Origin: Longimicrobiales bacterium | GTDB lineage: Bacteria > Gemmatimonadota > Gemmatimonadetes > Longimicrobiales > Gaopeijiaceae | DNA length: 64,000 nt | NCBI GenBank assembly: GCA_951813395.1 | Contig: OX638356.1 | Coordinates: forward strand, 971,340-1,035,339 | Direction: 5' to 3' | Shown: one piece after another, positions 44,445 to 59,632 of the stretch | How the letters are laid out: each line of letters opens with the position of its first letter | Numbering within the stretch: the stretch's first letter is position 1 | Program-made: the position numbers and the translations under genes | The notes under the pieces: model-generated | What the model saw: only the letters and a program-made list of their open reading frames with translations | Databases searched by the model: none | Told to the model about the DNA's origin: nothing

Positions 44445-45985
44445 AGTCTTTTCCAATACGGAGATGAGCCTGAACCGGAGAAGGTGCGAGGGGTGAGGCC
44501 CGAGCCCGGGGCAGGTGGCAGTTGAGGGTGTATCATTATCTCCTTGTACGGGGGAGAGAGGCAACCGGCGGGCCGTGGGACGCCGGAGAGGCAGGAGGGT
44601 CTCCGGCAAGCTTGCGGTTGGCGCGAGTCGGATCACGCGGCGGAGTTGCTGGACTGGCCGATGGCGCGGAAGAGTTCGTCGCGGGAGCGCTGGACGGCTT
44701 GGGCGGCGTCGAGGTCGGTGGTTGCGGCGGCGAGTTGGTCGAGGGCACCGAGGGTGACACCGGGCCGGAGGAAGGCTTCGGCGCCGGGCAGGGCCTTGAA
44801 GCGCTCGTGGGGCGTGGTCACGTCCTGTTGCCGGTAGCGCCGCTTGACTCGGCCGGTGGGGCTGGTGATTTCGGTGGGGAAGAGGCAGGGCCGGTGGAAG
44901 TTGAGGAAGGGGCAGAGGTGGTCGTGGAGGAAGGCGTTGACCTGGGGGACGAGGGCGTGGGGGACGTGGATGTGGCCGAGCCACTTGCGGACGACGGCTC
45001 CGTTCTTGGTCTCGACCAGCGCGTTGTCGTTGGGATGGCGGGGCCGGGACTTGGTGAAGACGCCGACGTGGAGCTTGTTGAGCAGCGCGGCCACCCGGCC
45101 GTTGACGTATTCGCTGCCGTTGTCCGCATGGAAGGCGTGGACGGTGAAGGGGAAGGCGGCCAGCAGGGCTTCGAGGCGCGGGACGAGGAAGTGCTGGGTG
45201 ATGCGCGGCACGGCTCCAAGGTGTTGGAACTGCGTGACTTCGTCGACGACGTTGATGAGATAGATGCCCTTCCGGTCGTCGCGGTCGCCGAGGTGGACGG
45301 TGTCGACGCGGAGATGGCCGGGTTTGCCATCCGGCCGCGGCTTGCGGCGGATCCCGATGGCGATGGGAGTGGACCGGGTCTTACGGAAGGTGAGGCGGCC
45401 GGTCCGGTACGCGCGGGTCTTGCGGAGGTTGTAGATGTGGCCGTTGGAGATCGAGGCGAGGCGTGCGAAGCGTCCGTCGCCGTAGACCTCGTGCATGCGT
45501 TGCAGGACCACCTTGGTGGCGGGTCCGGAGGGCTGGCCGAAGGCTTCGTCGACCTCGGCGAGCAGAGCGGCGTCGTGGGGCGTGTAGCGCCGCCGGAAGG
45601 CGTTGGCCGGGGGCTTGTTGCGGTGGTCGCGGATGTGGCCCGTCCGGCGGTGCTGTCGGATCAGGCGGGTGACCTGGGCGCGGGAAATGCCCGTCGCCTT
45701 CTCAAGGAACCGCTTCACCAGCCCCTTGTCGGGCTTCCCGAGGCCGTGGTACTCGAAGCGGACCAGCGTGCGGCGGACGAAGACGTAGGCGGAAGTGCGG
45801 TCGGTGATCTGGAAGTCCGCAGATTCGTTGCCTTCCACGAAGGCGCGCATCTGGTCGAGCGTCCGGATTCGTTCGGTGCGAAGTGTCACGATCATTCTCC
45901 AATGATCTCTTCGCCCCGGCCTTCAGGCTCACTTCCCGCTGGAAACCGGCCCCGCGTTCAGGCTCATTTGCCGTTGGACAAGACT
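44445..45985 (-). mobile_element. IS-A copy 2: 1541 bp, inverted relative to copy 1, right end later hit by IS-B
   Basis: Same length and ends as 29770-31310; one base difference noticed (45896 versus 29859). The left flank is CGGGG (44440-44444). The base after the right end is followed by CGGTG, which does not match, because IS-B inserted there. The true right flank CGGGG is found at 47550-47554, beyond IS-B and behind a repeated copy of the IS-A terminus. So this copy was a normal 5-bp-duplicating insertion. Confidence 0.93.
44633..45895 (-). CDS. IS-A transposase, second copy
   Basis: 420 residues identical to the protein at 29860-31122, with the same DDE residues (VDTVHLGD, HADNGSEYVNG, NDNALVETKNG). 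The base just before the ATG is A rather than G, so the ribosome site reads GGAGA-ATG. All parts needed for activity are present, although the element's right terminus is now separated from its original flank by IS-B. Confidence 0.95.
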   Translation of the reverse strand: MIVTLRTERIRTLDQMRAFVEGNESADFQITDRTSAYVFVRRTLVRFEYHGLGKPDKGLVKRFLEKATGISRAQVTRLIRQHRRTGHIRDHRNKPPANAFRRRYTPHDAALLAEVDEAFGQPSGPATKVVLQRMHEVYGDGRFARLASISNGHIYNLRKTRAYRTGRLTFRKTRSTPIAIGIRRKPRPDGKPGHLRVDTVHLGDRDDRKGIYLINVVDEVTQFQHLGAVPRITQHFLVPRLEALLAAFPFTVHAFHADNGSEYVNGRVAALLNKLHVGVFTKSRPRHPNDNALVETKNGAVVRKWLGHIHVPHALVPQVNAFLHDHLCPFLNFHRPCLFPTEITSPTGRVKRRYRQQDVTTPHERFKALPGAEAFLRPGVTLGALDQLAAATTDLDAAQAVQRSRDELFRAIGQSSNSAA

Positions 45986-45988: not shown

Positions 45989-47535
45989 TGTGAAACCAAA
46001 GTAGAAATGTCCGGGGTTTGTCCAAAGTAAGAATGTCCGCCTCTAGAGTTGGGATTTTGGGGCCTTGGTGGGAGGGCGCGCGCGCCCTCCCACCAAGGTG
46101 ACCCCCTCCGCGGATATCCCAGCCGCTTCACCGGTCCTTCCCAGCAGTCTCGTCGCGCTCCCGCGCCTTCCGCTTCGCGGCAGCCAGCCGGACATCGTTC
46201 TCGAAGCCCCGCCGCCAAGGGTGGTTCGGCCGGGGCTTCGGCGGCGAGGACTTGGCCCTCGCAGGCTTCTCGGGCGTGGGCGCCGGACGGGGCCTGGGCC
46301 GTGCTCGCCCCAAGCACTCGGCCTCCAGATACCGGTCTGCGGCGCGGATGCGGGTCTCCCCGTTGAGCCGCAGTTCCACGACGACCGAACTCCCGGGCGA
46401 TACGTGCACGGCCTCCCGCTCCGGGATCTGCCAGTACACATTGCGGAAACGGATCGTGAAGTCGCGCTGGACCTCCCGTGTCTCCGTCTCCGCGAAGAGC
46501 GCCTCCAGGTCCACCCCGGGCGGCAGCGGCCGGTGCGCGTCCATGGGATCGCGCGGCTCGACCGTGAAGCGGTCGTTCCAGAACGGTGTCCACCACTCGG
46601 TCAGGAAGCGGTTCGCCCCGCCGAGGGTGTCGATGCCTGCGACCCGCATCTCCTTGATCAGCCGGTCCTGCGCCGTCCCGAAGCTGCGCTCGACCCGGCC
46701 CTTCGCCTGGGGAGAACCTGCCAGGATCACCTCGACGCCCAACACGTCGAGCCCCCGCGCGATGATCGTGTCCGTCCGCTCCTCCTTCCTCGACAGCCAC
46801 TGTCCGAAGTGCCCGGCATGGTCGGTGTAGACGGCCAGGGGGCGGCCGTGGCGGCGCAGATACCCGATGATCGCCCGCCGGTTCTCCGCTCCGTCGTCGC
46901 GCTCGACGAACCGCCCCATCATCAGGCGGCTCGTCGCGTCGTCGTGGATCGAGATCAGCACGCACTCCCCCGCCCGGTCCTCCAGCCACCGGTGCACCGA
47001 ACTGTCCCACTGGCCCAGCTCCCCCAGCGCCGCCCGCCGCTCCCGCCGCCTGCGGTGCTTCGCACGCCTTCGCCGCCGCTCCCACAGACCATCGGCGAGC
47101 ATCCAGTTCCGCAGCGTCTCCACGCTTACACGCACGCCGAAGGTCCGCTCCAGGTGCTCGGCAAGCAGCGTCGGCCCGAAGTCCCGGTACAGCGGATCTC
47201 TCGCGACGGCCATCACCCGCTCCCGAACCTCGGTCGGCAGCGACCGGTTCGACGGCCGCCCGCGCAGACCGTGAACGACGGCCGCGTCGCCCTCGGTCTC
47301 GAACCTCCGCCGCATCCGCCGAAAGTGCCGCCGCGTCACCCCCAGCCGTTCCGCCCCCGCCGCCGGTGTCAACACTCCCTCGCTCACCTGCCTCAACACC
47401 GAAATCCGGTCCCGCTCCTTCACACTCAGGTCCATACGCTCCTCTCTCGTCACGCGTTCGGCTACCAACCGAACATGATCCGAAAGAGGACATTTCTACT
47501 TTGCTAAGACCGGACATTTCTAAATCGGTACGACA
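45989..47535 (-). mobile_element. IS-B: 1547-bp insertion sequence with 17-bp target duplication, IS1202/ISNCY-like
   Basis: The element begins TGT and ends ACA. The outer inverted repeats share TGT and then TAGAAATGTCC about 13 bases in. Further copies of the AGAAATGTCC-like unit lie inside both ends (AAGAATGTCC near 46026, GTAGAAATGTCC reversed near 47490), suggesting several transposase sites. Long target duplications of this size are, to my knowledge, a mark of the IS1202-related group once listed under ISNCY; the transposase fits that group. It carries one gene. Confidence 0.88.
46128..47435 (-). CDS. IS-B transposase (DDE, ISNCY/IS1202-like)
   Basis: 435 residues from the ATG at 47435, preceded by AGAGAGGAG. 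An in-frame TTG 33 bases upstream is possible. The N-terminus is a helix-turn-helix (VLTPAAGAERLGVTRRHFRRMRRRF). The catalytic core has GQWDSSVHRWLED (first Asp) and LAVYTDHAGHFG (second Asp); the third acidic residue is probably the Glu in SPQAKGRVERSFGTAQDRL. The C-terminal part (VYWQIPEREAVHVSPGSSVVVEL) is a small beta domain, then a basic tail. It appears intact. Confidence 0.92.
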   Translation of the reverse strand: MDLSVKERDRISVLRQVSEGVLTPAAGAERLGVTRRHFRRMRRRFETEGDAAVVHGLRGRPSNRSLPTEVRERVMAVARDPLYRDFGPTLLAEHLERTFGVRVSVETLRNWMLADGLWERRRRRAKHRRRRERRAALGELGQWDSSVHRWLEDRAGECVLISIHDDATSRLMMGRFVERDDGAENRRAIIGYLRRHGRPLAVYTDHAGHFGQWLSRKEERTDTIIARGLDVLGVEVILAGSPQAKGRVERSFGTAQDRLIKEMRVAGIDTLGGANRFLTEWWTPFWNDRFTVEPRDPMDAHRPLPPGVDLEALFAETETREVQRDFTIRFRNVYWQIPEREAVHVSPGSSVVVELRLNGETRIRAADRYLEAECLGRARPRPRPAPTPEKPARAKSSPPKPRPNHPWRRGFENDVRLAAAKRKARERDETAGKDR

Positions 47536-48014: not shown

Positions 48015-48665
48015 GTGGAATCCCACGACGGTGTCCTCGAATACGAGCGAGATCTCTGGGCACGCGGCGTCGCGCGGGTTGCCGGGGTCGATGAGGTCGG
48101 GCGCGGACCGCTGGCGGGGCCGGTCGTAGCAGCCGCGGTCATCCTTGCCGAAGACGTGGCGATCGATGGCGCGATGGACTCGAAGGCGCTGACCCGGGAG
48201 CGCCGCACGGAACTCGCCAGGGAGATCGAGGCTCGTGCGGCGGCGATCGCGCTCGGTGCGGCGTCCGTCCGTGAGATCGACCGGATGAACATCCTGCGCG
48301 CCACCACGCGGGCCATGACCCGTGCCCTGGCGCGCCTTCCATTGGCACCGGATCACGTGGTGGTGGACGGATTGCCGGTCCGGGATCTGGGCTGGGAACA
48401 CGAGGCGGTGGTTGGGGGTGACGCGCGGGTCCACTCGATTGCGTGCGCATCGATCGTCGCCAAGGTCTGCCGCGACCGCCTGATGACGCTGCTGGCCGCG
48501 CGGTATCCGGACTACGGGTGGGATCGCAACATGGGCTACGCGACCCGCCGGCACCGGTCGGCCTTGCGTGCGTCGGGGCTGACTCCGCACCACCGCACAA
48601 CGTTCGGGCTGCTGCAACTGGAGCTGCCCTTCGCCGACCTGACAGTCGGACTGACGCCGGACTGA
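48015..48665 (+). CDS. rnhB: Ribonuclease HII
   Basis: 216 residues from a GTG 12 nt after rplS. Catalytic pattern: ARVAGVDEVGRGPLAGPVVAAAV (Asp, Glu of the DEDD set), VVVDGLPV (third Asp) and HSIACASIVAKVCRDRLM (fourth Asp). YPDYGWDRNMGYATRRHRSALRASGLTPHHRTTF is the usual C-terminal signature. It removes ribonucleotides from DNA and RNA primers. The rplS-rnhB pair is the conserved end of the rpsP operon. Confidence 0.96.
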   Translation: MESHDGVLEYERDLWARGVARVAGVDEVGRGPLAGPVVAAAVILAEDVAIDGAMDSKALTRERRTELAREIEARAAAIALGAASVREIDRMNILRATTRAMTRALARLPLAPDHVVVDGLPVRDLGWEHEAVVGGDARVHSIACASIVAKVCRDRLMTLLAARYPDYGWDRNMGYATRRHRSALRASGLTPHHRTTFGLLQLELPFADLTVGLTPD

Positions 48666-48756: not shown

Positions 48757-48829
<73 letters not shown>

Positions 48830-48865: not shown

Positions 48866-49948
48866 ATGCCCCGAAGGACACCTGCCCCCGCCACCATCCG
48901 GCGCACCCCCCTCATCACCCGGCTTCGCCCTCATTCCACTGCGGCCGCCCTGTCCGCCCTGCTGATCCTCTCGGCTCCCGCCTGCGCCCAGACCACCCGC
49001 ACTTTCGGCGACGATCCCGGCCTCGCCCACCTCGCCGACGAGGTCGCGCGGCTGGCCGAACACGCCCAGGGCACGGTGGGCGTCGCGGCCTACCACCTCG
49101 AAACGGGACGCGGGATCACGCTCAACGGCGGCGAACGCTTCCCGATGGCGAGCACCTACAAGGTCCCCATCGCGGTGCAGATCCTCACGATGGTCGACAA
49201 CGGCGAACTGTCGCTCCACGACCTCGTCGAAGTCGACCAGAAGGACGTCTACCTGACCGCCAGCGCGATCAGCGACCTCATCGACGACCCGGGTCTCCAG
49301 ATCTCGATCCACAACCTGCTCGAGATGATGCTCCAGATCAGCGACAACATCGCCACGGACCTGCTCATGCGGGAGGCGGGCGGATCCGCCGCCGTGACCG
49401 AGCGCATGGCCGCGGTCGGGGCCGACGGCATCCGGGTCGACCGCCCGACCTGGGCCCTGATCGCCAACTGGCTCGGCGATGCGGACATATCGGAGGACAA
49501 CCAGCCCCACCCGGACGACTACCGGCGGCTGCTGGAATCGGAGCGCACCGAAGCGTCGCTGGCGCCTCTCAACGCCGCCTTCAACGCCGACCCGCGCGAC
49601 ACGTCGACGCCCGAGGCCATGTCGTCGTTGCTGCAGAAGATCTGGAACCGGGAGATCCTGTCCGAGGAGAGCTCGGCGCTGCTGATCGACATCATGTATC
49701 GCTGCCAGACCGGCGAGGCGCGGCTCAAGGGCGCGCTGCCGCCGGGCACCGAGGTCGCGCACAAGACCGGAACGATCGGCCAGACGACCAACGACGTGGG
49801 GATCATCGATCTGCCGGGCGGTGCGGGCCATGTGGTGACCGTCGTGTACATCAAGGAATCGGAGGTCGAAAGCGTCGCCGACCGGGAGCCCGTGATCGCG
49901 CAGATCGCGCGGGCGGTGCACGACTACTTCGTGTTCAACCGTGGGTAG
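48866..49948 (+). CDS. Class A beta-lactamase-like serine hydrolase with altered omega loop
   Basis: 360 residues with a signal peptide (AAALSALLILSAPACAQ). Class A motifs: S96-T-Y-K99 (SxxK), S159-D-N161 (SDN) and K300-T-G302 (KTG). The omega loop is odd. RVDRP at 190-194 sits where other enzymes read RxDRWE with Glu166, but no Glu follows. About 35 extra residues intervene before PLNAAFNADPRDTSTP, which matches the rest of the loop. Without that base, fast deacylation of beta-lactams is doubtful, so it may be a slow lactamase, a peptidase or an esterase. The stop overlaps the next gene by 8 nt. Confidence 0.85.
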   Translation: MPRRTPAPATIRRTPLITRLRPHSTAAALSALLILSAPACAQTTRTFGDDPGLAHLADEVARLAEHAQGTVGVAAYHLETGRGITLNGGERFPMASTYKVPIAVQILTMVDNGELSLHDLVEVDQKDVYLTASAISDLIDDPGLQISIHNLLEMMLQISDNIATDLLMREAGGSAAVTERMAAVGADGIRVDRPTWALIANWLGDADISEDNQPHPDDYRRLLESERTEASLAPLNAAFNADPRDTSTPEAMSSLLQKIWNREILSEESSALLIDIMYRCQTGEARLKGALPPGTEVAHKTGTIGQTTNDVGIIDLPGGAGHVVTVVYIKESEVESVADREPVIAQIARAVHDYFVFNRG

Positions 49949-51533
49949 GATCCGGCGGCGCGCCCGCCGGGTCATGGGCTGGCGGGCCGGGCGGCTGGCC
50001 GCGGCGGTCGGGGCTGTCGCGCTGGTCGCGCGGCCGGCCGCCGCCCAGAGCGCCCCGCTCGAAGGGCTGGACGACTACGTCACCGCGGCGATGGAAGCGT
50101 GGCGCGTCCCGGGTCTGGCGCTCGCCGTGATCGCGGACGGCGAGGTCGTGCACGCGCGCGGCTACGGCGTTCGCGACGTGCGGACCGGCGCGCCGGTCGA
50201 CGAGCACACGCTCTTCGCGGCGGGGTCGACATCGAAGGCGTTCACCTCGGCCGCGCTGGGCCTGCTGGTCGACGAGGGCCGCGTGAGCTGGGACGACCGC
50301 GTCATCGACCACATCCCGTGGTTCGCCATGTACGACCCGTATGCCACCCGGGAGCTCACGGTGCGGGATCTGCTCACGCACCGCAGCGGTCTGGCGCGCG
50401 GCGATGCGGTGTGGTCGCGCTGGCCGCACGATCGTCGCGAGATCATCCGCCGCGTCCGCTTCCTCGAGCCGACGCGCAGCTTCCGGGGAGCCTGGCAGTA
50501 CCAGAACCTGATGTTCCTCACCGCGGGCGAGGTGGTGTGGGCCGCTTCCGGGCGGACCTGGGACGACTTCGTGGACGAGCGGATCTTTACGCCGCTCGGA
50601 ATGGACCGCAGCGTCACCTCGGTGACCGAACTCGACCGATTCGACAACGTCGCGACGCCGCACGTGCACGTCGACGGGGTCGCTACGCCGGTCGAGCACA
50701 AGAACATCGACAACGTGGGCCCGGCGGGGTCGGTCTATTCCAGCGTGGCGCAGATGGCCCGGTGGGTGGACCTGCATCTGGCGGGCGGTGTCCATGCCGG
50801 CCAGCGGCTCTTCAGCGACAGCGTCATGGTGGAAATGCACCGGCCGCAGATGCTCATTCAGGCCGACGCGCCGGAGAACCGGCTTCACCCGCGCGATGCC
50901 CCCATGAACTTCAACGCCTACGGGCTGGCGTGGTGGATCATCGACTACCGGGGGCGCAAGGTGGTCGACCACGGAGGCGGGATCGACGGCATGCGCGCGC
51001 ACGTCGCCTTCATGCCCGAGGAGGGACTCGGGATGGTGGCGCTCTCCAATGCCCGTCCCAACAACCTGATCGTGGCGCTCATGTACCGCGTGTTCGATCA
51101 CTTCCTGGGGGTTGGTGGGGGTGACAAGCCCGATGTGGGCGACGCGCCCGACGCGGGCGGCGCAATGGCTGATTGGAGCGCGCTCATGCTTGCGGAATAC
51201 CGCGAATCCGCCGCGGCCCAGGCCGACGCGCGCAGCCGCCGGCAAGCCGACCGCGCCGCCGGCACGGCTCCCTCCCGACCGCTGACCGAGTACGCCGGCA
51301 GCTACGGCCACGAGTACTACGGCGCCGTGGACATCACCCACGAGAACGGCACGCTGCGCTTCAGCCTGGGCGGCAAGACCACGGGGCGCCTGGAGCACTG
51401 GCACTACGACGTGTTCCGCGCGGTACCGGACAACCCGGCCAACGGCGAGATGTTCATGACCTTAACGGTGGGGCCGGACGGTGTTGTGGGCGTGCTCGAG
51501 GTGGAAGGCCTGGGGAGCTTTGGGCGGCTGTAG
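49941..51533 (+). CDS. Class C beta-lactamase-family serine hydrolase with C-terminal DUF3471-like domain
   Basis: 530 residues from a GTG at 49941; the ATG at 49974 is an alternative that still leaves the signal (GRLAAAVGAVALVARPAAAQ). Motifs: nucleophile in AAGSTSKAFTSAAL (SxxK), tyrosine in WQYQNLMFL (YxN) and KVVDHGGGIDG as the HxG element. After a linker rich in Ala/Arg, a C-terminal beta domain (YAGSYGHEYYGAVDI, LEHWHYDVFRA, LTVGPDGVVGVLEV) covers the active site as in DUF3471 proteins. Peptidase or esterase activity is likely. A paralogue lies at 52504. Confidence 0.88.
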   Translation: MGRIRRRARRVMGWRAGRLAAAVGAVALVARPAAAQSAPLEGLDDYVTAAMEAWRVPGLALAVIADGEVVHARGYGVRDVRTGAPVDEHTLFAAGSTSKAFTSAALGLLVDEGRVSWDDRVIDHIPWFAMYDPYATRELTVRDLLTHRSGLARGDAVWSRWPHDRREIIRRVRFLEPTRSFRGAWQYQNLMFLTAGEVVWAASGRTWDDFVDERIFTPLGMDRSVTSVTELDRFDNVATPHVHVDGVATPVEHKNIDNVGPAGSVYSSVAQMARWVDLHLAGGVHAGQRLFSDSVMVEMHRPQMLIQADAPENRLHPRDAPMNFNAYGLAWWIIDYRGRKVVDHGGGIDGMRAHVAFMPEEGLGMVALSNARPNNLIVALMYRVFDHFLGVGGGDKPDVGDAPDAGGAMADWSALMLAEYRESAAAQADARSRRQADRAAGTAPSRPLTEYAGSYGHEYYGAVDITHENGTLRFSLGGKTTGRLEHWHYDVFRAVPDNPANGEMFMTLTVGPDGVVGVLEVEGLGSFGRL

Positions 51534-52344: not shown

Positions 52345-52418
52345 AGCGCCGGGACTTGCTGCGGCACTTGGCACGGCACGGCTGCGCCTTCCAATGGCAC
52401 ATATATGAGACACCCTGA
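52341..52418 (+). pseudogene. hicA: Truncated hicA toxin remnant
   Basis: GTG AAG CGC CGG GAC reads VKRRDLLRHLARHGCAF, the N-terminal helix of HicA proteins (KRRDLLRHL...HGC), then QWHIYETP and TGA. A full HicA has about 60-85 residues with a catalytic His in the middle strand, which is missing here. The reading breaks within a few codons of the palindrome at 52412-52432, suggesting the 3' part was lost in the event that placed the palindrome. Confidence 0.65.
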
Positions 52419-52432
52419 CGTTACGTCAGGGT
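52412..52432. repeat. 21-bp perfect palindrome, right member of a pair
   Basis: ACCCTGACGT-T-ACGTCAGGGT is perfect about a central T. It overlaps the stop of the hicA remnant and lies 72 bases upstream of the second serine hydrolase start. Confidence 0.65.
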
Positions 52433-52503
52433 TAGCGGAAAAGAACTGCCCAACCGAGGGCCGCTGGTGGGCTTGGCGCGTCGCCCTTCGGCCCGGGCAA
52501 CGA

Positions 52504-54123
52504 ATGTCCCGCTGGCGCGCCGCGGCGGGCCTGCTCGCCGTCTGCTGCGCGACCGCCGCCGGGAGCCTGCACGCCCAGGATGTGCAAGACCCTGCGCCGG
52601 GCCGGACCCCCCACGCCCTCGCCGACCTCGACACCTACATCGCCCAATCCATGCCGGACTGGGACATTCCCGGGCTTGCGGTGGCGGTCGTGCACGAGGG
52701 CGAGGTGGTTTTCGCGCGGGGCTTCGGGGTGAAGGAAGCGGGCAGGGACGATCCGGTGGATGCGCGCACCCTCTTCCAGATTGGCTCGGTGACCAAGTCC
52801 TTCGCCGCGGCCGCCATCGGCGCGCTTGTCGACGAGGGGCTGGCGGCGTGGGATGACCCCGTCATCAAGCACCTCCCCTGGTTCCGCGTGAAGGACCCGT
52901 GGATCACGCGCGAGATCACGTTGCGCGACCTGCTGTCGCACCAGTCCGGCATGCCCGGGGCCGCGTATCCGGTGCTGGCGGTCGTGGACGCGCGCGAGAC
53001 CGCGGAGGGCCTTCGCCTGCTCGACAACCAGGGCCCGCTCCGGCAGGGCTACCGGTACAGCAATCAGGCCTATGGCGTGGCCGGACTCGTGGTGGAGGCG
53101 GCTGCGGGCATGAGCTGGGGTGCGTGGGTGCGGGAGCGGTTGCTGGCGCCTCTGGAAATGCGGAACACCGGGACAAGTCCATACGACGTTTGGGACTCCG
53201 TGCACGTCGCACCGACCTTCCTCGGCAGCGCGCCGGCCGGGATCCCCGGCATCGACCATGCGCCGGGGCGCAACGTGGCCATGCCCCACGGGGTCGACCG
53301 CAGCGGGGATCGGCGGGTTCTGTCGTGGCAGTCCTACGACAACATGCAGGCGGCGGGCAGCGTTGTGTCCAACGTCGTCGACATGGCGAACTGGGTTCGG
53401 ATGCAGCTCAACCATGGCCGATTCGATGGCGTCGCCGTCCTGGATTCCACGACCGTGTCCGAGATGCACGCGCCGCAGGTTCGCACCGCGTCCACATTCG
53501 TCTTCGCCGACCCCGGCTCCGGCAGCTACGGGCTGGGATGGGCGCGCGCGAGCTTCCTCGGGCACGCGTACATCTCCCACGGCGGCGGCATCTTCGGCTT
53601 TCCGGCGTACGTGGCGATGCTGCCCGAGGCGAACGCGGGCGTCGTCGTGCTGGCCAACGGCAGCATGTGGACGCCCTACTACCCCCACCACGAGATCGCG
53701 GCCTGGGTCTTCGCGCGCCTGCTGGGGGTCGAGGGACGGGACTGGCACGGCGAGGTCATGGCCCGGACCGAGGCGATCCACGGCCAGGTCGAGGCGGCGC
53801 TGAGCGCCCGGGCGGCAGGGCGCATCGAAGGGACCCGGCCGTCGCTCCCGCTGGCCGCCTACGAGGGGCGCTACGAGGACGAATACGGAGCCGCGGCGGC
53901 GCATGTGGTCCACGGCGACGGCGGCCTGCGGGTGCACTTCGGGGCCGCGGGCTCATTCTCGGGCGACATGGAGCACTGGCATCACGACGTGTTTCAGCTC
54001 CACTATGACGGCGGGGATGGCCAGGCGTACGGGAGTTCGTTCGTGACCTTCACCGTCGGTCCCGACGGGGGCGTCGCGCAGATGGACATGGGATTCATGG
54101 GACGGTACCGGAGGGTGCGTTGA
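52504..54123 (+). CDS. Class C beta-lactamase-family serine hydrolase with C-terminal DUF3471-like domain (paralogue)
   Basis: 539 residues from the ATG at 52504, which opens a signal peptide (RAAAGLLAVCCATAAGSLHAQ). Motifs: GSVTKSFAAAAIGAL (SxxK nucleophile), YRYSNQAYGVAG (YxN) and ISHGGGIFGF (HxG). The C-terminal domain (YEGRYEDEYGAAAAHVV, MEHWHHDVFQLHYDG, TFTVGPDGGVAQMDMG) parallels that of 49941-51533, so the two are old tandem duplicates. Earlier in-frame starts run into the hicA remnant and palindrome. It is followed by a TTG-started hydrolase with a 4-nt overlap. Confidence 0.9.
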   Translation: MSRWRAAAGLLAVCCATAAGSLHAQDVQDPAPGRTPHALADLDTYIAQSMPDWDIPGLAVAVVHEGEVVFARGFGVKEAGRDDPVDARTLFQIGSVTKSFAAAAIGALVDEGLAAWDDPVIKHLPWFRVKDPWITREITLRDLLSHQSGMPGAAYPVLAVVDARETAEGLRLLDNQGPLRQGYRYSNQAYGVAGLVVEAAAGMSWGAWVRERLLAPLEMRNTGTSPYDVWDSVHVAPTFLGSAPAGIPGIDHAPGRNVAMPHGVDRSGDRRVLSWQSYDNMQAAGSVVSNVVDMANWVRMQLNHGRFDGVAVLDSTTVSEMHAPQVRTASTFVFADPGSGSYGLGWARASFLGHAYISHGGGIFGFPAYVAMLPEANAGVVVLANGSMWTPYYPHHEIAAWVFARLLGVEGRDWHGEVMARTEAIHGQVEAALSARAAGRIEGTRPSLPLAAYEGRYEDEYGAAAAHVVHGDGGLRVHFGAAGSFSGDMEHWHHDVFQLHYDGGDGQAYGSSFVTFTVGPDGGVAQMDMGFMGRYRRVR

Positions 54124-55184: not shown

Positions 55185-55390
55185 GAGGGGGCTGGGTGGG
55201 CCCGTTCGCGTCCGCGCGCGGGGAACGGTATTGAACGTCCGTGTAGACACCCGGCGGATTTCTCCGAGATTAGATAAACGGGTGAGGTCGGCAGCCGCAT
55301 CCGATGAGCGGGTGCGCGCAGCCCGGCCTCGACGACCCGGGGGCCCGCTTACCGCGGATTCTTCCGGGTTCTCCAGGGGGCGGTACCAAA

Positions 55391-58300
55391 ATGCGAGCAT
55401 GGATGCCTTGGGTGGTGGCGGGTGTGGTCCTTCTTCCCCAGACCAGCGCACAGGCGCAACAGACGTCGTTCGAGGACGGGGATGGTGAGGGGGTGGCGAG
55501 TGTGGGGGAGGGTCGCGTCGACGCGCGGGGACCGCGTGCGGTAGCGGGATCGCGCGGTGTGCCGAGAATCATCAGCATCACGACCGACGCGGACCTTCCT
55601 ACGAACGACGAGTTTACGGTAACGGTCGAGTTCTCGGAGGATGTCGATGATTTCGACCTCAGCGATGTCCAGGTCCCCCCACAACAAGGCGACGCCACCA
55701 GTTTTAGCGAAGTCTCGCCCGACGAGTACCATGTCTTTATCGAGCCGGAGGACGACTACGAGGGACCCCTGACGGTCAGGATCAGGAGCGGCGCGGTGGA
55801 AAGTGTGTCCACGAAAGATCCGAATGCTGCGGCAAGCGAGACCTTCGAAGTCGACACGGTCGAGCCGGAATTGGACGACGCCACCGTGGAAGGCGACGAA
55901 CTCGTTCTGGAGTACGACGAGGACCTCGACGAGGGCTCGGTACCGCGAACGACCCGTTTCGACGTCGAGGTGAATAGCGCTGGCCGGTTCGTCGACAACA
56001 TCACTGTCAGGGGCGACAGAGTGATCCTCACGCTCGAAAGCCCGGTTGAACCGCGTGACAATGTACGGGTTACCTACGATACTCGAGCCGGGGCGCTCAT
56101 CCAGGACATCGCGGGCAACGAGGCTGACGAGTTCGACAACGAACGCGTCACCAACAACACCCAGACCAGCACCAGCGCTCCCAGCGCCCCCCGTGACCTT
56201 ACCGCCACCGCCGATGGACAAACCGTCATCGAGCTTGACTGGCGGGCGCCCTCCAGTGAAGGCGCCAGCAGCATCACCGGCTATCGCATCGAGTATTCGA
56301 CCAACGAGGGGACGACATGGAGGACGCTGGAGAGCGACACCGGTGACGACGACACGGATTACAGGGACACCGGCCTCGATAAGGGGACGACCCGGCACTA
56401 CCGCGTATCCGCCATCAACGACGACGGCAGGGGGCCGGTTTCCAACGTCGCCTCCGCGACCACGGACTCCGACCAGCCCGGCGCGCCCACGGGATTGACG
56501 GCAAGGGCGAACGGCACCGACCGAATCGTTCTTTCCTGGACGCGCCCGACCAACGAGGGCGATGGCATCACCGGCTACCGGATCGAGGTTTCCCCGGATG
56601 GCAACAGCTGGACGACGCGCGCGACCGTCACGGGCCGGAACACGACCACCTACACTCATAGTGGGCTGACCCCGGGGACTACTCGGCACTATCGGGTCTA
56701 CGCGATCAGCTCGGCGGGTGAGGGCCCGCCGTCCAACGTTGACAGCGCCACGACCGACATCGGCAGGCCAAGCGCACCCCTGGAACTCTCGGCGACCGCC
56801 GTCGGGCAGACCAGCATCAGGCTCGCCTGGACGCCTCCGCTCGACGACGGCGGCGCGCCGATTACACGCTACCGGATCGAAGTGTCGCGGACGGGCACGT
56901 CCGGTTGGCTCCTGGTGACTTCCAACAACCGGTCCACAACCTACACGCACCCGGGGCTCAACCCTGGAAGCCGGCGCTACTACCGGGTCGCGGCGATCAA
57001 CTCTGAAGGTACCGGTCCGTTCTCCGGGGTTGCGAACGCCATTACCGACGCCACGACGCCCAGTGCGCCGACCAATCTGGTGGCTACGGCTCACGGCCGC
57101 ACCCAGATTAACCTGTCGTGGCGAACACCCCTGATCGATGGCGGCGCACGGATCACCGGTTACCGGATCGAGGTTTCGTCGGACGGGGGTAACAACTGGA
57201 CGACCCGCGTGGGCAACACGGGTACGATCGCGACCACGTACGTGCATCCCGGACTGAGCCCCGCCACTACACGGCACTATCGGGTCTACGCGATCAACTC
57301 GGCGGGCACGGGCCCGGCGTCGAATGTCGCCAACGCCACCACCGACGCTACCGTCCCGGGCGCGCCTCAGCGTCTTACGGCGACCGCCAAGGGACAGTCC
57401 CGAATCGACCTGGCCTGGACGCCACCGACCAACGACGGCGGGGCGGCGATCACCGGCTACCGGATCGAGACCTCGACCGACCGGAGGACGTGGAGGGCTC
57501 TGCGCGGCAACCACTCGTCGACCTCGTTCCCGCATGTCGGCCTGGCGCCGGCCACGACGCGGCACTACCGGGTCTTCGCGGTCAACGTCGCGGGCACGGG
57601 CCCGGCTTCGAACGTCGCGACCGCCACGACGGACGCCACGGTTCCCGGCGCGCCCACCGCACTGTCCGCAACGGCCTCCGGCACGTCGCAGATCGACCTG
57701 TCCTGGACGGCCCCGAGCTACGACGGGGGTGCGGCGCTGACGGGGTATCGCATCGAGGTGGCGGAGACCGGCAACGGGCCGTGGTCCAATCTGGAGGCCA
57801 ACACCGGCTCCACCGCGACAACGTACCCCCACACCGGATTGGACCCCGCGAGCACCCGCTACTACCGGGTCTACGCGATCAACTCGGTGGGCAGCGGAAG
57901 AGCCTCCGGCGTCGTCAGGGCCACCACCGACGCCACTGTGCCGGACGCACCCACCAACCTGCAGGCGACGGCGACGAGTCCGACACAGATCGACCTCACC
58001 TGGAGCGCCCCCGGCTACGATGGCGGTGCCCCCGTGACCAGCTATAGAGTGGAGATCTCGGCGGACGAAGGTTCGACCTGGGGTGTGCTTGCGCCCTCCA
58101 CGGGCTCGACCGGCACCGCGTACCCGCACAGCGGACTGCAGCCGGGCAGCACGCGGCACTATCGGGTCTCGGCCATCAACGTCGCCGGCACGGGCCTCGC
58201 CTCGAATGTCGCCAACGCCAGCACGGACGATCCGCGGCAAAGGGCGGGGCGGGTCAATGCGGAGGTGCTGCCCCACGCGGTCGCCGCGATGACCGCGAGC

Positions 58301-59632
58301 ACTGTCTCGGCGATCAGCGGCCGGATCGAGGCGGTGGCTGCCGGGGTTCCGTATGGACGGCAGGCGACCATGGGTCTGCTCTCTTCCGGGATGAGCGGGG
58401 CCATGATTGGCCAGGGTGGCGGTGCAGCCGGGTTCGGCCCGGACCGCGACCTGGGCATGGGTCAATTGCTGGACGGGGCCTCCTTCCTGGTGCCCCTCGG
58501 TGGAAGCGGTGTGCAGGAGGCGGGGGGCGGGCTCCCGAACATCGCGACATGGGGCAGCGGCGAATACCAGAGCCTGTCGCGTAACCGCGGCGGAGTGGTC
58601 GATTGGGAGGGGACCATGTTGAACCTGCACATGGGTGCCGACGTCCAGCTGCGCTGGGATATCCTCGTGGGACTCGCGGCCAGCCGGTCTGCGGGCGACT
58701 TCGACTTCACGGACGACAACGGACCCATGGCGGTCGACGGCACCTATCAGAGCGAGATGACCACCGTGAACCCGTACGCGGCCTGGTTCCTCGGCCGCGG
58801 CGGCGTGGTTGCGTGGGCGACCGCCGGTATCGGGTGGGGCGACGTCGAAATCGAGGACGAACGCCAGGCACTGCGCCGGAGCGGCACCAACATGCGGACC
58901 GCCGCGGCGGGCGCCAGCGGGATTCTCCTGTCGAGGGGCAGCGCCAAGTTGCGTGTCCGGGCCGAAGGCTGGATGTCGCAGGCCGAGGTGGAAGGGGGCA
59001 CGGAGGTCGACTCGATGTCCCTTGAGGTTCGGCGGGGGCGTCTGGCCCTCGAATGGCAGCAGGGGTACCGGTTCCGTTCGGGTCACGAGGTCGCGGCCCT
59101 TATCGAAGGCGGACTGCGATACGACGACGGCGACGGCGGCCAGGGCGAAGGAGCCGAGGTCGGGGGTGGACTCCGTTACGTGAGCCCGCAGTCAAGGCTG
59201 ATCGTCGAGGGTCGGGGACGAGTCCTCGCGACCGGGCACTTCGGATACGAGGAGTGGGGTGTCAGCGGTCTGGTCCAGTTCGACATGCACCGTCGCGGCG
59301 AGGGACTGTCCATGCGGCTGGCCCCCGCCTGGGGCGAGGCGTCAAGCGGTGTGCAGCAGCTGTGGGATCGAGGGGTGACCGACCGGCTCGGCACCGGCGC
59401 GGCACTTGCCAGGGCCCGTCTCGACGCCGAGGTGGAATACGGCCTGCCGGACTTCGGCGGCACACCCTACGGGCGCGTCTACCTGCTGGATGGCGGGGAC
59501 CGCGCGTTCGGAACCGGGGTGCGCTACGAAATCAGCCGCGCCATGAATCTGCGTATCGAGGGGACCCGGCGGGAAAGCGTCCTCAACGGGCCACGGCACG
59601 GCCTAACCCTCAGAGGCCGGTTGAGGTTTTAG
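55391..59632 (+). CDS. Fibronectin III-repeat autotransporter adhesin
   Basis: 1413 residues from the ATG at 55391 with signal peptide MPWVVAGVVLLPQTSAQAQ. Next are an Ig-like segment and, near 155-256, a SwmB-like domain (VEGDELVLEYDEDLDEGS, DNVRVTYDT, IQDIAGNEADEF). Residues about 261-950 hold seven fibronectin III repeats, each with TGYRIEVS and TTRHYRVYAINSAGTGPASNVA-type strands. From about 960 a translocator follows, with alternating beta strands and a final Phe (LTLRGRLRF), as for outer-membrane barrels. It should expose the repeats on the cell surface. The gene has no operon partner; 205 bases upstream are free. Confidence 0.88.
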   Translation: MRAWMPWVVAGVVLLPQTSAQAQQTSFEDGDGEGVASVGEGRVDARGPRAVAGSRGVPRIISITTDADLPTNDEFTVTVEFSEDVDDFDLSDVQVPPQQGDATSFSEVSPDEYHVFIEPEDDYEGPLTVRIRSGAVESVSTKDPNAAASETFEVDTVEPELDDATVEGDELVLEYDEDLDEGSVPRTTRFDVEVNSAGRFVDNITVRGDRVILTLESPVEPRDNVRVTYDTRAGALIQDIAGNEADEFDNERVTNNTQTSTSAPSAPRDLTATADGQTVIELDWRAPSSEGASSITGYRIEYSTNEGTTWRTLESDTGDDDTDYRDTGLDKGTTRHYRVSAINDDGRGPVSNVASATTDSDQPGAPTGLTARANGTDRIVLSWTRPTNEGDGITGYRIEVSPDGNSWTTRATVTGRNTTTYTHSGLTPGTTRHYRVYAISSAGEGPPSNVDSATTDIGRPSAPLELSATAVGQTSIRLAWTPPLDDGGAPITRYRIEVSRTGTSGWLLVTSNNRSTTYTHPGLNPGSRRYYRVAAINSEGTGPFSGVANAITDATTPSAPTNLVATAHGRTQINLSWRTPLIDGGARITGYRIEVSSDGGNNWTTRVGNTGTIATTYVHPGLSPATTRHYRVYAINSAGTGPASNVANATTDATVPGAPQRLTATAKGQSRIDLAWTPPTNDGGAAITGYRIETSTDRRTWRALRGNHSSTSFPHVGLAPATTRHYRVFAVNVAGTGPASNVATATTDATVPGAPTALSATASGTSQIDLSWTAPSYDGGAALTGYRIEVAETGNGPWSNLEANTGSTATTYPHTGLDPASTRYYRVYAINSVGSGRASGVVRATTDATVPDAPTNLQATATSPTQIDLTWSAPGYDGGAPVTSYRVEISADEGSTWGVLAPSTGSTGTAYPHSGLQPGSTRHYRVSAINVAGTGLASNVANASTDDPRQRAGRVNAEVLPHAVAAMTASTVSAISGRIEAVAAGVPYGRQATMGLLSSGMSGAMIGQGGGAAGFGPDRDLGMGQLLDGASFLVPLGGSGVQEAGGGLPNIATWGSGEYQSLSRNRGGVVDWEGTMLNLHMGADVQLRWDILVGLAASRSAGDFDFTDDNGPMAVDGTYQSEMTTVNPYAAWFLGRGGVVAWATAGIGWGDVEIEDERQALRRSGTNMRTAAAGASGILLSRGSAKLRVRAEGWMSQAEVEGGTEVDSMSLEVRRGRLALEWQQGYRFRSGHEVAALIEGGLRYDDGDGGQGEGAEVGGGLRYVSPQSRLIVEGRGRVLATGHFGYEEWGVSGLVQFDMHRRGEGLSMRLAPAWGEASSGVQQLWDRGVTDRLGTGAALARARLDAEVEYGLPDFGGTPYGRVYLLDGGDRAFGTGVRYEISRAMNLRIEGTRRESVLNGPRHGLTLRGRLRF
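56173..58230 (+). repeat. Seven tandem fibronectin III coding repeats
   Basis: Units of about 290 bp recur with near-identical segments around TGYRIEVS and RHYRV-A-N-AGTGPASNVA. Each ends in TTDA/TTDS-V-P-AP linkers. The middle units are the most alike, which favours unequal recombination and length variation. Confidence 0.8.

What the first reader, a model, noticed from the sequence alone, without database searches (positions are those of the whole stretch)
48866..49948. Class A beta-lactamase fold without Glu166 and with an enlarged omega loop
SxxK, SDN and KTG are all in place, but RVDR is followed by P-T where the class has W-E166. About 35 extra residues sit before PLNAAFNADPRDTSTP, the second half of the loop. 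Candidate replacements are Glu210, 224, 226 or 229. The protein may acylate without fast turnover, or use a different base, and could be a distinct branch of serine hydrolases.
Basis: partly seen in the sequence, partly recalled or inferred. Interest (0 to 1): 0.5.

Follow-up and report, generated by a model that had tools for sequence, protein, structure and literature searches.

The report
Glutamate-free relative of class A beta-lactamases
This bacterial gene makes a probably secreted protein shaped like a common penicillin-destroying enzyme but without the amino acid that lets such enzymes release the used drug, so it probably does another job even though automatic annotation would call it a resistance enzyme.

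Summary
In detail: the 360-residue ORF at 48866-49948 has SxxK (S96-K99), SDN (159-161) and KTG (300-302), Thr195 where class A enzymes have Glu166, and an omega loop 37 residues longer than a TEM-like homologue's. It is not a one-off: 48 of 395 Gemmatimonadota genomes carry a Thr166 long-loop protein, and with a small Val166 branch these form one clade (97/99). The idea that an insert glutamate replaces Glu166 is not supported: Glu occurs at 210, 224, 226 or 229 in only 7 to 17 of 52 clade proteins, and the homologous insert also occurs with Glu166 intact (24 of 395 genomes; 12 genomes hold both forms). The core is under purifying selection, so the protein is in use. A confident predicted model (pLDDT 91.8) is closest to LRA-5, a solved class A-fold protein that also lacks Glu166 and turns over poorly. 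Best reading: an acylation-competent, slowly deacylating serine enzyme working like LRA-5 or the DD-peptidase PBP-A, not a resistance beta-lactamase. New variant of a known kind. Activity, substrate and active-site distances were not measured.

The parts
48866..49948 (+). class A-fold serine enzyme without Glu166 (360 aa)
   Evidence: PF13354 1.5e-50; NF033103 bla_class_A 231.9 bits, cut-off 200; AF2 model pLDDT 91.8, closest LRA-5
48866..48988 (+). probable Sec signal peptide, residues 1-41 (ends A-C-A)
   Evidence: read from the sequence by eye; no signal-peptide tool was run
49151..49162 (+). SxxK motif S96-T-Y-K99 (Ambler 70-73)
   Evidence: S and K in 51 of 52 Thr166 long-loop proteins, the other a contig-edge fragment with a gap
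49340..49348 (+). SDN motif 159-161 (Ambler 130-132)
   Evidence: S and N 52 of 52; middle residue D 46, E 6 of 52
49442..49444 (+). Arg193 (Ambler 164), first anchor of the omega loop
   Evidence: 52 of 52
49448..49450 (+). Thr195 in the place of catalytic Glu166
   Evidence: alignment column: Thr in 52, Glu in 24, Val in 4 of 80 long-loop proteins
49451..49588 (+). enlarged part of the omega loop, residues 196-241
   Evidence: 37 residues longer between the anchors than TEM-like L034; homologous to the insert of Glu166-bearing relatives; modelled helices 195-202, 216-224, 229-241 (model number + 49)
49598..49600 (+). Asp245 (Ambler 179), second anchor
   Evidence: 52 of 52
49763..49771 (+). 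KTG motif 300-302 (Ambler 234-236)
   Evidence: 51 of 52, one gap in a contig-edge fragment
49941..51533 (+). downstream PF00144 + DUF3471 serine hydrolase; its mechanical ORF start overlaps the stop of the gene
   Evidence: a PF00144 gene follows in the closest orthologues
48757..48829 (+). tRNA-Lys just upstream
   Evidence: ARAGORN
48015..48665 (+). RNase HII gene upstream
   Evidence: PF01351 1e-38; conserved neighbour in close relatives

Best explanation
A probably secreted serine enzyme with the class A beta-lactamase fold that can form an acyl-enzyme (Ser96, Lys99, Ser159, Lys300 all in place) but has no Glu166 base to release a beta-lactam quickly. It most likely works like LRA-5 or cyanobacterial PBP-A: it recognises penicillin-like or D-Ala-D-Ala-like groups, is slowly released from beta-lactams, and has a peptidase or related acyl-transfer role in the cell envelope rather than antibiotic resistance. 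Shown: motif conservation, absence of Glu at 166, one clade, purifying selection, predicted fold. Inferred: secretion, acylation competence, slow deacylation, substrate.
For: Acylation residues conserved in 51-52 of 52 Thr166 long-loop proteins. Core dN/dS 0.055-0.22 against 10 orthologues. Predicted fold pLDDT 91.8, pTM 0.92; best match LRA-5 8EO5, Z 38.2, rmsd 1.5 over 264 residues (rows within 1 Z are tied, and 6V4W and 8EO6 are), LRA-5 also top by Foldseek and by sequence. LRA-5 lacks Glu166, gives no MIC increase, and its turnovers are below 0.05 per second except for nitrocefin and cefepime (PMC12777564: abstract, sections 5 and 10, passages). PBP-A, considered a DD-carboxypeptidase, is described as differing from class A enzymes by this missing glutamate (PMC11189452, passages). 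Twelve of 395 genomes carry both a Thr166 and a Glu166 long-loop paralogue, which argues for separate jobs. The gene keeps its place after rplS-rnhB and before a PF00144 hydrolase in close relatives.
Against: No activity data of any kind. A different water-activating group, in or outside the loop, is not excluded. The 37-residue loop extension has no counterpart in LRA-5. The tree does not place LRA-5 next to this clade with support. PBP-A was not aligned residue by residue here, and is not among the 50 entries listed or the 50 rows.
Confidence: 0.55

Rival explanations
1. An active beta-lactamase in which an acidic residue of the enlarged omega loop takes over the role of Glu166.
For: The loop is modelled confidently (block pLDDT 89-95). 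Among the 14 closest proteins E210 is kept in 13 and D/E at 207 in 14. Column 211 is D or E in 39 of 52.
Against: Across the clade no acid between the anchors is kept in 52 of 52 except D242 and D245, which ordinary class A enzymes share. In each of the ten orthologue comparisons the loop segment has a higher dN/dS than the core (0.17-1.23 against 0.055-0.22). The homologous insert is present in proteins that still have Glu166.
Confidence: 0.1
2. An esterase or other acyl hydrolase on a non-peptidoglycan substrate, comparable to Cpe (ORF12) of Streptomyces clavuligerus, a class A-like protein without detectable beta-lactamase activity.
For: Cpe shows that the fold without the omega-loop deacylation residues can be a cephalosporin esterase and be needed for biosynthesis (PMC6478378, passages). 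The downstream gene is a PF00144 hydrolase.
Against: Cpe has KAG or KGG for KTG and an extra N-terminal domain; here KTG is intact and Pfam finds no other domain. By eye the ORFs between about 37 and 60 kb show no biosynthetic cluster; no cluster tool was run.
Confidence: 0.2
3. A non-turnover beta-lactam trap or sensor that is stoichiometrically acylated and signals or protects.
For: Acylation motifs intact, deacylation base missing.
Against: Among the nine neighbouring proteins scanned with Pfam none is a signalling partner over its cut-off. A trap would need high expression, which was not testable.
Confidence: 0.1
4. A decaying beta-lactamase gene that lost its base and is on the way out.
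For: Glu166 is absent.
Against: Purifying selection in the core; no internal stop in the 14 closest loci (13 same genus including the own genome, 1 same family); 48 of 395 genomes with the Thr166 long-loop form. Ten of the 22 other genomes of the genus had no close orthologue, so the gene is dispensable, or missed in incomplete assemblies.
Confidence: 0.03

Closest known systems
LRA-5 (PDB 8EO5, 8EO6), Alaskan soil metagenome
   Same: class A fold, SxxK, SDN and KTG intact, no Glu at 166 (Val there), nearest solved structure by sequence and by fold
   Different: short omega loop; Tyr69 instead of Ala69; 31-36% identity in the structural alignments; not joined to the window clade in the tree with support
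PBP-A of Thermosynechococcus elongatus (PDB 2J9O, 2J7V, listed as TLL2115 protein)
   Same: class A-like fold without the omega-loop glutamate; sequence hit at 7.4e-27 (that TLL2115 is PBP-A is recalled)
   Different: described as found only in cyanobacteria and as a DD-peptidase; weaker match than LRA-5; loop not compared here
Cpe/ORF12 C-terminal domain of Streptomyces clavuligerus
   Same: class A-like domain whose omega-loop deacylation residues are missing
   Different: KAG instead of KTG and an N-terminal isomerase-like domain; needed for clavulanic acid biosynthesis
Glu166-bearing long-omega class A proteins (L131 of Sinorhizobium meliloti; L027, L028 and most of L090-L110 of Gemmatimonadota)
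   Same: homologous enlarged omega loop of nearly the same length
   Different: keep Glu166 and fall outside the Thr/Val166 clade; I saw no assay of any of them
PER and TLA class A beta-lactamases and NCBIfam subclass A2
   Same: fold, motifs and strong profile or structure matches
   Different: PER-1 keeps Glu at this column and has a short loop (L132); the others were not checked residue by residue

Membership tests
class A beta-lactamase (Ambler) | SxxK, SDN and KTG motifs | tested here: met
class A beta-lactamase (Ambler) | class A fold | tested here: met
   predicted model, Z 35-38 for the 50 entries listed; a prediction, not a structure
class A beta-lactamase (Ambler) | catalytic Glu166 in the omega loop | tested here: not met
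   Thr195 in the window protein and in the 13 closest relatives
class A beta-lactamase (Ambler) | hydrolysis of beta-lactams with turnover | not testable with these tools
   needs an assay
NCBIfam NF033103 bla_class_A | score above the curated cut-off | tested here: met
   231.9 and, for the mature part, 232.7 bits, cut-off 200; the model does not demand Glu166
LRA-5 type | class A fold without Glu at 166 | tested here: met
   Thr here, Val in LRA-5 (PMC12777564)
LRA-5 type | common clade with LRA-5 | tested here: inconclusive
   LRA-5 is on a long branch, placed with L115 at 76/58; only two printed stretches of LRA-5 were used
LRA-5 type | short omega loop | tested here: not met
   53 residues between the anchors here; in the alignment to LRA-5, 52 unaligned query residues face 13 of the chain
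PBP-A | missing omega-loop glutamate | tested here: met
   Thr here; PBP-A described so
PBP-A | DD-peptidase activity | not testable with these tools
   needs an assay
PBP-A | cyanobacterial family | tested here: not met
   Gemmatimonadota by the record titles of the seven orthologues; family membership by tree was not tested, as PBP-A was not in the tree
Cpe/ORF12 | altered KTG and N-terminal isomerase-like domain | tested here: not met
   KTG intact; only PF13354 and PF00144 hits on the same domain

The most novel reading that the evidence does not exclude
A class A-fold enzyme family conserved across much of the Gemmatimonadota with Thr or Val at position 166 and a large structured omega lid, in which the lid, shared with Glu166 enzymes, forms the pocket for a native cell-wall substrate; natural pairs of paralogues, with and without the base, live in the same genomes.
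Probability: 0.35. Interest if true: 0.6.

Novelty: new variant of a known kind. Interest (0 to 1): 0.42.

Why it matters
It shows that the class A beta-lactamase fold without its deacylation base is not a single curiosity but a selected protein clade in at least 48 of 395 genomes of a phylum, in 12 of them beside a Glu166 paralogue with the same enlarged loop. That gives natural matched pairs for asking which way the step between penicillin-binding and penicillin-destroying enzymes went. It also flags a practical annotation problem: the current NCBI model accepts such proteins as class A beta-lactamase, so resistance-gene counts in environmental metagenomes may be inflated.

Tried and rejected
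Rejected: insert acid as replacement base (conservation). Rejected: pseudogene (dN/dS). The first structure job, with 8 orthologues, gave pLDDT 42.8 and was not used. Viral-contig scans with A2, A4 and the Sinorhizobium protein found no relative; A3 found five loci; four DNA-pattern scans served to deepen the alignment for the second structure job. Distances from loop residues to Ser96 could not be measured: no coordinates were available. PBP-A is not among the 50 entries listed by VIA-align; that is no evidence against it. Paper searches for Gemmatimonadetes with Glu166, LRA-5 with PBP-A (no paper), naturally Glu166-less proteins, omega-loop insertion, Sinorhizobium class A with omega loop and Gemmatimonadota with class A or penicillin-binding terms showed no description of this clade in the rows listed (8 to 20 a search, titles and abstract starts only); the library holds open-licence papers only. 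PMC6273383 was searched for Glu166 terms without a match; of PMC9146315 passages were seen.

Limits of the counts: the 102 proteins are distinct homologues taken by score, not a random sample; exact duplicates were dropped, the rule against pieces under 200 aa removed none, and 14 distant paralogues were set aside. The 71-row tree started from 101 rows, left out rows at 88% identity or more, the 14 distant paralogues and the omega columns, and added references. Its group test leaves 21 rows in no group uncounted. Genome counts are lower bounds: partial rows of G298 and G198:C39 were not fetched, and rows above E 1e-30 were not listed. Loop comparison by shuffling was done for one of the two Glu166 groups only.

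Full report
Observation. The ORF at 48866-49948 (+) encodes 360 residues. SxxK (S96-K99), SDN (159-161) and KTG (300-302) are present; R193 (Ambler 164) is followed by P194 and T195, so the catalytic Glu166 is missing, and Ambler 170 is Ile199. Between the loop anchors R193 and D245 there are 53 residues against 16 in a TEM-like homologue, 37 more.

Identity. Pfam gives PF13354 at 1.5e-50. NCBIfam NF033103, bla_class_A, scores 231.9 bits against a cut-off of 200, and 12 of 12 members of a family alignment (10 with Thr166, 2 with Glu166) match it at E 1e-58 or better, so routine annotation would call this a class A beta-lactamase although Glu166 is absent. The best solved relative by sequence is LRA-5. 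The genome is Gemmatimonadota, judged from the record titles of seven orthologues of 74-94% identity.

Family survey. Twelve of 22 other genomes of the genus hold a close orthologue, and a profile search of 395 genomes of the phylum found matches at E 1e-30 or better in 74. Of 102 distinct homologues aligned, 52 have Thr at position 166 with the long loop, 24 Glu with the long loop, 4 Val with the long loop, 8 have short loops (4 Glu, 3 Tyr, 1 Met), and 14 are distant paralogues set aside. By genome, 48 of 395 carry the Thr166 long-loop form, 24 of 395 the Glu166 long-loop form and 12 both.

Tree. With the omega columns left out, the 35 Thr/Val166 long-loop rows of a 71-row tree are one side of a branch with 97/99 support. 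After removing nine long-branch rows the group remains (SH-aLRT 100, quick tree). Glu166 status needs at least five changes on the full tree and loop length at least seven; without the nine rows Glu166 needs two. Several deep branches, LRA-5 and the Sinorhizobium protein among them, are long and weakly placed, so the direction and number of changes are not settled.

The insert. Profile comparison of loop residues 196-241 alone matches the Thr group to the two Glu166 groups at 69.9% and 84.3% probability; 30 column-shuffled controls of the first of these groups reached at most 0.7%. The two Glu166 groups match each other less well (36.7%). A Sinorhizobium meliloti protein annotated as class A beta-lactamase has an enlarged loop of this kind with Glu166. 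So the insert is a shared feature that occurs with and without the base, which speaks against its being the base's replacement. Glu is found at 210 in 17, 224 in 10, 226 in 10 and 229 in 7 of the 52 Thr166 proteins; with Asp counted too, 224 is acidic in 14 and 229 in 23. Only D242 and D245 of the acids between the anchors are kept in 52 of 52; they correspond to 176 and 179, which I recall as structural positions of class A enzymes. Against this reading: among the 14 closest proteins E210 (13) and an acid at 207 (14) are well kept, and column 211 is acidic in 39 of 52, so a role of a loop acid is not excluded.

Selection. Against ten orthologues the core has dN/dS of 0.055-0.22, the loop segment 0.17-1.23, higher than the core in each of the ten. 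The protein is maintained; the loop segment is freer to vary.

Structure. A model from 15 sequences has mean pLDDT 91.8 and pTM 0.92, with 89-95 in the blocks of the loop; the loop itself was informed only by the 8 close sequences of that alignment. The best match is LRA-5 8EO5 (Z 38.2, rmsd 1.5 over 264 residues; LRA-5 also first in Foldseek). The loop contains three helices, the first beginning at Thr195.

Neighbourhood. trmD (named by eye) - two transposase-like ORFs - rplS - rnhB - tRNA-Lys - this gene - PF00144/DUF3471 hydrolase. In the closest orthologue loci with enough flank rplS and rnhB precede the gene and a PF00144 hydrolase follows; the 51-60% relatives with a few kilobases held show none of these neighbours. 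The setting looks chromosomal and housekeeping; of nine neighbouring proteins scanned none is a known beta-lactamase regulator.

Mechanism. Conserved Ser, Lys, Ser and Lys of the acylation machinery with the deacylation base absent predicts an acyl-enzyme that forms but is released slowly with beta-lactams. LRA-5 is the measured precedent (PMC12777564: abstract, sections 5 and 10, passages) and PBP-A the precedent for a peptidase with this fold and without this glutamate (PMC11189452, passages). Cpe shows the esterase alternative (PMC6478378, passages). I favour an LRA-5/PBP-A-like envelope enzyme; this is inference until assayed.

Verdict. The protein is real, conserved and Glu166-less. It fails a defining feature of class A beta-lactamases and should not be filed as one; it is a new long-loop variant of the known kind of Glu166-less class A-fold proteins.

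Noticed in passing
L002/L140, own genome C1:493379-494401: A distant paralogue (29% identity, PF13354 190 bits) also has no Glu at the 166 column and another long loop; none of the 14 such distant proteins set aside has Glu there, though the alignment is unsure at this distance. Its best solved match is 4EWF, then TLL2115/PBP-A.
   Followed up: partly
12 genomes, e.g. L067 with L093 (G099): Thr166 and Glu166 long-loop paralogues occur in the same genome.
   Followed up: partly
L134 (Sphingomonas plasmid) and L201 (viral contig): Two short-loop proteins with Ile at position 166, joined in the tree on long branches: another branch without the glutamate.
   Followed up: no
L029, L030, L032; L031: Short-loop Gemmatimonadota homologues with Tyr (three) or Met (one) at position 166.
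   Followed up: no
44633-45895 (-) and 46128-47468 (-): Two transposase-like ORFs (rve below its cut-off; HTH domains) lie in the 3.7 kb between trmD and rplS, which are under 1 kb apart in the six relatives where both were found (L004-L007, L009, L010).
   Followed up: no
49941-51533 and 52405-54123: Two PF00144 + DUF3471 hydrolases downstream, about 0.9 kb apart; one or both are found in close relatives.
   Followed up: partly
55304-59632: A 1442-residue protein with seven fibronectin type III matches.
   Followed up: no
NCBIfam NF033103: The curated class A model accepts proteins without Glu166, so resistance annotation may be inflated.
   Followed up: partly
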